Source: Nitrospirota bacterium
GTDB lineage: Bacteria; Nitrospirota; Thermodesulfovibrionia; Thermodesulfovibrionales; UBA6898
NCBI GenBank assembly: GCA_021811105.1
Contig: JAJZPM010000003.1
Coordinates: forward strand, 124,001-188,000
Length of the DNA stretch: 64,000 bases
Direction of reading: 5' to 3'
The position numbers and the translations under genes were made by a program. Each line of letters begins with the position of its first letter. Within the stretch, counting starts at the first letter, position 1. Below are positions 17,726 to 18,424 of this stretch, piece after piece. The notes beneath the pieces were generated by a model that was not told the DNA's origin, did not search any database, and saw only the letters and a list, made by a program, of their open reading frames with translations.

Positions 17726-18424
17726 TCAGTTGGCCTGCCCGACTTTTGAAACCGGTCTGATATAGTCGATCAAACTCCTGATCTCCTCTTCGAAGAGGGG
17801 GCCGCTGTGCCTCGCGTCCCATCCGGGCATAGAGGTTTTCTGGACACCTTCCCTGATCGCCCTTTCGACGTCTTCCTTATTTTTTGCCCGCAGGGCCGCA
17901 AGCGGAGACGCACTTTTCGCCGTGTTGTGGCACATCATGCAGTCGTTAATAAAAAGGTCGAACCCTTTCCTCCCTCTGCCGCGGTCCACATGGCATATTT
18001 TGCATGCGCCGCTGAATATTTCGGCTGCCTTGTATTTCTTCATGTGAATCAGGTCTTTTATCTTCATCTTCATAGAAAGGATCGTCTGGGGTCTCTGAGG
18101 ATCGTTTGTATGGACCTGGACGGTCTTCATAATGTTCCCGAATTTCCCGCGGATATTCACCTCCACCCTGATTTTGCCCTTTTCTCCGGGCTTCAGACGG
18201 CTCGAACTGGCCATCACCGCTGTGCAGCCTCAGGACGGCACCAGTTTTTCTATCACGAGGTCACTGTCTCCGGCGTTTTCGATCTCGAAGAAGTGCTCGA
18301 CCTTGTCCTCCTGCGTAACGGTGCCGAAGTCGTGTTGCGGTTTGTCGATGCGCAACGACGGCGAGGCATACGAACTTGCCGCCACACATAGGAAGAACAC
18401 CGTAGTCAAAAGGGTTTTTGCCAT
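17726..18424 (-). CDS. DUF1573/cytochrome c protein with in-frame UGA, candidate selenoprotein
   Basis: Two ORFs in the same frame, separated only by a TGA codon at 18230-18232, form one 232-codon gene. Signal peptide ([20 protein letters not shown]), DUF1573 domain (about 24-120), then a heme-binding end with CKICH and CMMCH and a possible Met ligand in SMPGW. DUF1573 carries a conserved SCGCT motif; here the DNA reads S-(TGA)-G-C-T, so UGA replaces the first Cys and both sides match the domain. After 14 bases a hairpin GATGGC/GCCGTC with an 8-base loop follows, the place of a bacterial SECIS. Read as selenocysteine, the protein is whole and probably periplasmic. A simple nonsense mutation is the alternative. 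Confidence 0.7.

What the first reader, a model, noticed from the sequence alone, without database searches (positions are those of the whole stretch)
17726..18424. Candidate selenoprotein: UGA replaces the conserved Cys of the DUF1573 SCGCT motif
Two ORFs in the same frame are separated only by TGA, and the joined protein aligns through the domain as S-(UGA)-G-C-T where the family has SCGCT. The gene is otherwise intact: signal peptide before it, and the rest of DUF1573 and two CxxCH sites after it. A hairpin GATGGC/GCCGTC begins 14 bases after UGA with its loop at about 20 bases, within the range of bacterial SECIS elements, though the loop's first G is at the third position. A U-x-C redox pair next to heme sites would be a new arrangement to my knowledge.
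Basis: partly seen in the sequence, partly recalled or inferred. Interest (0 to 1): 0.88.

Follow-up and report, generated by a model that had tools for sequence, protein, structure and literature searches.

The report
Selenocysteine DUF1573–diheme cytochrome c protein
The internal stop codon in this gene almost certainly encodes the rare amino acid selenocysteine: the same UGA, followed by the same RNA hairpin, is kept in dozens of related bacteria, in a secreted protein that joins a selenium–sulfur pair to two heme sites.

Summary
The gene at 17726-18424 (-) is intact except for UGA65, which sits where relatives have the first Cys of SCGCT. The genome has selA, selB, selD (itself with an in-frame UGA) and a tRNA-Sec with anticodon UCA. 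About 38 full-length genes and dozens of DUF1573-only genes in the same Nitrospirota order carry UGA at this column. The bases after UGA form a covarying 7-bp hairpin with an AGUUC loop: at least 6 of 7 pairs form in 46 of 53 Sec genes and in 0 of 78 Cys genes. Codons after UGA are under purifying selection (dN/dS about 0.2-0.3). DUF1573 with a UGC motif has been a predicted selenoprotein family since 2008 (OS_HP2; NCBIfam NF041425), and Sec-containing multiheme cytochromes are known (ExtKL). What I did not find described is the DUF1573(Sec)-diheme cytochrome c fusion, its spread through the phylum, and sister forms: Sec-DUF1573 fused to SCO1/SenC, and proteins with two Sec-DUF1573 copies. Most likely function: a periplasmic selenenyl-sulfide redox module wired to c-hemes; chemistry and partner are unproven. 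Verdict: real, a new variant of a known kind.

The parts
17726..18424 (-). Complete gene of the DUF1573(Sec)-diheme cytochrome c protein, 232 residues with U65; terminal TGA stop at 17726-17728
18365..18424 (-). Signal-peptide-like N-terminus (about 20 residues, [20 protein letters not shown])
   Evidence: Sequence; hydrophobic helix 2-16 in the model; similar N-termini in relatives
18080..18352 (-). DUF1573 / PapD- and HYDIN-like Ig domain, residues 25-115
   Evidence: Pfam PF07610 at 86.2 bits; model pLDDT mostly above 90; 2qsv Z 14.6 over 102 residues
18230..18232 (-). In-frame UGA codon read as selenocysteine 65 (S-U-G-C-T)
   Evidence: column is U or C in all 36 aligned homologues
18224..18226 (-). 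Cys67, partner of U65, invariant in the 36 full-length homologues
18196..18215 (-). Bacterial SECIS-type hairpin GATGGCC-AGTTCG-AGCCGTC, starting 14 nt after UGA
   Evidence: covariation; Sec against Cys genes; energies
17750..18052 (-). C-terminal cytochrome c domain, residues 125-225
   Evidence: Pfam PF13442 at 38.5 bits; helical in the model, lower confidence
17990..18004 (-). Heme c site 1, CKICH (141-145), invariant CxxCH
17927..17941 (-). Heme c site 2, CMMCH (162-166), invariant CxxCH
17822..17830 (-). MPG (199-201), conserved; Met199 is the likely distal heme ligand (inference)

Best explanation
A periplasmic selenoprotein. UGA65 is decoded as selenocysteine by SelB and tRNA-Sec, directed by the hairpin that starts 14 nt downstream (strongly supported by sequence, not shown biochemically). 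The product is exported and carries a U-G-C selenol/thiol pair on a PapD-like Ig domain, fused to a C-terminal cytochrome c domain with two heme c sites (supported by domain and motif matches). It most likely works as an electron relay: U65 and C67 cycle between reduced and selenenyl-sulfide states while exchanging electrons with a periplasmic thiol, metal or chalcogen substrate, and the hemes carry those electrons to or from the respiratory chain (inferred). Substrate and direction are unknown. Related Sec-DUF1573 domains fused to SCO1/SenC, or lying in NosD/NosL/ABC operons, suggest that some family members serve copper-site maturation or thiol redox.
For: Sec machinery: selA 614 bits and selB 373 bits, adjacent on C37; selD with one internal TGA; tRNA-Sec tca. 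Conservation: 91 of 176 genomes of the order match, nearly all with one in-frame TGA; about 38 full-length genes, plus two from other families of the class. Column 65 is only U or C, and C67, both CxxCH and MP are invariant. Hairpin: 92.9% of cells paired, 6 of 7 pairs with two-sided changes, 0 of 500 shuffles as high on the covariation score. Sec genes 46/53 with at least 6 pairs, Cys genes 0/78. dN/dS after UGA 0.18-0.29. Sec and Cys labels are clustered on the tree with few changes. SCO1 fusion, and NosD, NosL and NosR-like neighbours, of sister forms.
Against: No protein-level evidence of selenium or of heme attachment. The window's own hairpin has a C-A mismatch at the loop-closing pair and does not strictly pass the published bSECIS rules; 42 of 53 Sec genes do. 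A few genomes with the Sec form lack a detected selA; of seven checked, four have selB, one a fragment and two nothing clear. The window gene has no functional operon partner: ubiA/ubiX downstream, uvrA divergent. The own genome has no NosD above cut-off, so the copper link does not reach this copy.
Confidence: 0.9

Rival explanations
1. Same selenoprotein, but U65/C67 is mainly a soft-metal ligand (for example Cu(I)) and the hemes supply electrons to keep metal or ligand reduced: a copper- or metal-handling protein rather than a thiol redox enzyme.
For: A Sec-DUF1573 domain is fused to SCO1/SenC (PF02630, 72.7 bits) and, in a related genome, lies beside NosD, NosL, NosR-like and ABC proteins. 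The CxC-on-Ig-fold arrangement recalls Cox11 (from memory, not tested).
Against: The window gene is not in such an operon and its genome has no NosD above cut-off. Some second copies keep U without any nearby Cys, and the cytochrome fusion favours electron transfer.
Confidence: 0.3
2. Pseudogene or sequencing error: UGA65 is a true nonsense mutation.
For: In one genome alone an in-frame stop would look like this.
Against: UGA at the same column in dozens of species, purifying selection after it, covarying hairpin in UGA genes and not in Cys genes, full Sec machinery.
Confidence: 0.01
3. UGA is read through by another route (Trp or near-cognate suppression), so the residue is not selenocysteine.
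For: No protein data exist here.
Against: Replacement is only by Cys in aligned homologues, the hairpin goes with UGA and not with Cys, tRNA-Sec with UCA is present, and this gene itself ends in TGA.
Confidence: 0.02
4. The UGA works as a selenium-dependent switch: a short truncated product without Se, and the full cytochrome with Se.
For: Any Sec UGA can terminate; DUF1573-only Sec proteins exist.
Against: Termination at residue 64 cuts the Ig domain in half, so a stable short product is unlikely.
Confidence: 0.05

Closest known systems
OS_HP2 / DUF1573 selenoprotein family (PF07610, NCBIfam NF041425; GOS survey 2008, PMC2398784; motif UxC or UGC)
   Same: Same domain, same U-G-C motif, UGA in place of a Cys codon, Cys homologues elsewhere.
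   Different: Scores 82.6 bits against NF041425, below its cut-off of 100. The model covers the Ig domain only; the C-terminal diheme cytochrome is not part of it, and I found no mention of this fusion in the papers searched.
ExtKL of Geobacter sulfurreducens (predicted Sec-containing 5-heme c-type cytochrome, PMC5877670; NF040886)
   Same: Predicted Sec and c-type hemes in one polypeptide.
   Different: Different protein, with five hemes; DUF1573 is not mentioned in the passages read.
SCO1/SenC copper chaperones
   Same: Some sister Sec-DUF1573 domains are fused to SCO1/SenC (L106, L204, L207).
   Different: The window protein has no SCO1 domain.
Class I cytochrome c / CcoP-type (PF13442)
   Same: C-terminal domain with CxxCH, conserved MP(G) and GGPL...I.SLV.YI.
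   Different: A second CxxCH lies 21 residues upstream of the class I one, and an Ig domain precedes it.

Membership tests
Bacterial selenoprotein | In-frame UGA at a column held by Cys in homologues | tested here: met
   Column 65 is U or C in 36 of 36 homologues
Bacterial selenoprotein | Genome encodes SelA, SelB, SelD and tRNA-Sec(UCA) | tested here: met
Bacterial selenoprotein | Conserved hairpin downstream of UGA, absent from Cys forms | tested here: met
Bacterial selenoprotein | Published bSECIS rules: G in loop positions 1-2, UGA-to-loop distance 16-37 nt, MFE <= -7.5 kcal/mol | tested here: inconclusive
   Distance 20-21 nt is met. The window copy has G third in its best fold, second in a fold 0.2 kcal/mol higher; hairpin -7.4, or -8.6 with flanks. 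42 of 53 Sec genes pass the scan (rules from PMC13188914)
Bacterial selenoprotein | Selenium found in the protein | not testable with these tools
   Needs mass spectrometry or 75Se labelling
DUF1573 (PF07610) | Score above the Pfam gathering cut-off | tested here: met
   86.2 bits against 26.1
OS_HP2 seleno family NF041425 | Score above the curated cut-off of 100 bits | tested here: not met
   82.6 bits; short Sec forms of the same order also only 71-77
c-type cytochrome | CxxCH heme-binding motifs in an exported protein | tested here: met
   Two invariant CxxCH, PF13442 at 38.5 bits against 27; export judged from the signal-peptide-like N-terminus only
c-type cytochrome | Covalently bound heme | not testable with these tools
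   Needs heme stain or spectroscopy

The most novel reading that the evidence does not exclude
Sec-DUF1573 is a general periplasmic selenol/thiol module that Nitrospirota attach to different electron or copper partners (diheme cytochrome c, SCO1/SenC, a carboxypeptidase-regulatory-like domain in NosD/NosL/NosR-like operons), with some proteins carrying two Sec residues. It would link selenium use to respiratory electron transfer or copper-site assembly.
Probability: 0.35. Interest if true: 0.75.

Novelty: new variant of a known kind. Interest (0 to 1): 0.58.

Why it matters
It turns a thinly documented predicted selenoprotein family (two sequences in the 2008 survey) into a well-supported, widely conserved lineage with SECIS covariation and a testable architecture: a selenenyl-sulfide pair fused to c-hemes. 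Ordinary annotation would cut such genes at the UGA and miss both the selenium and the cytochrome. The SCO1 and Nos-type contexts of sister forms give a concrete lead to a function for DUF1573.

Tried and rejected
Pseudogene and sequencing error (conservation and dN/dS). Phage origin: no relative in viral contigs. Operon-based function for the window gene: neighbours are ubiA/ubiX and uvrA; ubiA is a neighbour in 9 of the loci sampled, but other loci have unrelated neighbours, so no functional partner is inferred. Search of the own genome with the SECIS model finds only the two DUF1573 genes strongly; the next hit is E about 0.01. NosD in the own genome: none above cut-off. Sequence search of solved structures found only partial, weak matches. 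The all-order alignment could not be used for the contig scan, so a subset was used. The published bSECISearch program was not available; its rules were scanned by script.

Full report
1. The observation. On the minus strand, 17726-18424 encodes MAKTLLTT... through S-UGA-GCT to a diheme C-terminus. Two ORFs in one frame are parted only by TGA at 18230-18232. Read with TGA as a residue, the protein is 232 aa. Pfam matches DUF1573 at 25-115, across the UGA, and Cytochrome_CBB3 at 151-222.

2. Sec machinery. The genome (3.94 Mb, estimated 100% complete) has selA (614 bits) and selB (373 bits) side by side on contig C37. It has selD with its own internal TGA and a tRNA-Sec with anticodon tca.

3. 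Conservation. Searching 176 genomes of the same order gave matches in 91, nearly all with one in-frame TGA in the aligned stretch. About 38 genes are full length (DUF1573 plus cytochrome) and the rest are mostly DUF1573-only. The own genome has a second, 53%-identical full-length copy, also with UGA. Over 396 genomes of the phylum the Sec diheme form also occurs in two genomes outside the order (L211, L212), while several full-length forms elsewhere are Cys. In the 36-row alignment column 65 holds only U or C. C67, both CxxCH motifs and M199-P200 are invariant. Named records with this gene are Nitrospirota MAGs, including one filed as Thermodesulfovibrio. Codons after UGA are under purifying selection: dN/dS 0.21 (Ig part) and 0.18 (cytochrome part) against the closest ortholog, 0.24 and 0.29 against the next.

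4. The hairpin. Forty-nine Sec genes align without gaps from UGA to +57. A 7-bp stem (columns 18-24 with 31-37) around the loop AGUUCx has 92.9% of cells paired and two-sided changes at 6 of 7 pairs. Its covariation score is 0.447 against a shuffled mean of 0.258, with 0 of 500 shuffles as high, and all slid versions score 0.15 or less. RNAalifold finds the inner six pairs unaided. In a wider comparison 46 of 53 UGA genes have at least 6 of 7 pairs and 51 of 53 have AGUU in place; of 78 Cys stretches, none has 6 pairs and one has AGUU. Much of the Cys set is distantly related (Bacteroidota), and a few rows picked up by the motif filter may not be DUF1573, so protein divergence contributes to that contrast. 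Published rules for bacterial SECIS ask for G in the first two loop positions and 16-37 nt from UGA (PMC13188914). By a scan of those rules 42 of 53 Sec genes pass. The window copy does not strictly pass, because its closing pair is C-A; an alternative 0.2 kcal/mol higher does place G second.

5. Association with the Sec trait. selA is found in 153 of 176 genomes of the order. Most genomes with the Sec form have it. Of seven that lack it, four have a full selB, one a fragment and two no clear selB. They are fragmented assemblies, so gaps are the likely cause, but this was not proved.

6. Structure. The model (pLDDT 86, pTM 0.64) has an Ig domain at 24-123 and a helical cytochrome domain at 125-225, less certain between about 130 and 170. 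The Ig domain matches 2qsv (Z 14.6, 1.4 A over 102 residues), then HYDIN and other PapD-like domains. The relative placement of the domains, and so the Se-to-heme distance, is not established.

7. Evolution. A tree of 44 full-length proteins needs three changes between Sec and Cys. One clade of Cys forms sits in a conserved cluster with a rhodanese-like secreted protein (PF00581) and a protein resembling methyl-accepting chemotaxis receptors. L088 is a Cys form (NCSC) nested among Sec forms on a long branch; that genome still has selA.

8. Sister forms. DUF1573 domains with in-frame UGA also occur (a) alone, about 120-140 aa; (b) fused to SCO1/SenC with U-x-x-C (L106, L204, L207); (c) after a carboxypeptidase-regulatory-like domain, with one or two DUF1573 copies (L105, L108, L201-L203, L205, L206). 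Where there are two copies, both have UGA followed by the same type of hairpin with a CAGTTCG loop, and the second copy lacks a nearby Cys. Loci L105, L106 and L108 lie in similar clusters. In L106 the members match NosD (380 bits), NosR in two pieces, an ABC transporter, NosL (160 bits), a ResA-like thioredoxin and a transglutaminase; L105 adds a CydA-like protein. This hints at copper-site maturation or thiol redox for those forms. It does not transfer directly to the window gene, whose genome has no NosD above cut-off and whose neighbours are ubiA, ubiX and uvrA.

9. Mechanism. Shown by sequence: a conserved Sec codon, SECIS-type hairpin, and domain and heme motifs. Inferred: export, Sec insertion, a U65-C67 selenenyl sulfide, and electron exchange with the hemes. 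I put the selenoprotein reading at about 0.97, electron relay as the main role at about 0.55, and metal ligand at about 0.3. The confidence of 0.9 given above is for the statement as a whole, dominated by the selenoprotein identity, with its substrate and direction left open.

10. Novelty. DUF1573 with UxC/UGC is listed as a predicted selenoprotein (PMC2398784 with two sequences; PMC9312934; PMC13188914), and only three papers in the library mention DUF1573. NCBIfam has a model, OS_HP2_seleno, that this protein matches below cut-off. A c-type cytochrome with predicted Sec is known in Geobacter (ExtKL, PMC5877670). I found no report of the diheme fusion, the two-Sec forms or the SCO1 fusion, but preprints and most subscription papers were not searchable. 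New variant of a known kind.

Noticed in passing
L105 7436-8893 (+), L108, L206: Proteins with two DUF1573 copies, each with an in-frame TGA followed by a hairpin with a CAGTTCG loop; the first is U-x-x-C, the second has U without a nearby Cys. Predicted two-Sec proteins.
   Followed up: partly
L106, L204, L207: SCO1/SenC domain fused to DUF1573 with in-frame TGA (U-x-x-C); L106 lies in a cluster with NosD, NosL, NosR-like, ABC transporter and ResA-like genes.
   Followed up: partly
L104 8526-8885 (-) (G160): DUF1573-only Sec gene with UGG instead of UGC: the partner Cys is lost but UGA and hairpin are kept.
   Followed up: no
L082-L087: Cys forms of the diheme protein lie in a conserved cluster with a secreted rhodanese-like protein and a protein resembling methyl-accepting chemotaxis receptors.
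   Followed up: partly
L008 (own genome C19:38459-39376): selD of the window's genome has an in-frame TGA (SCAGUAAKFSPSDL), so SelD is itself a predicted selenoprotein here.
   Followed up: no
L051 8020-8670 (-) (own genome C3): Second full-length Sec copy in the window's genome, 53% identical, also with UGA and the hairpin.
   Followed up: yes
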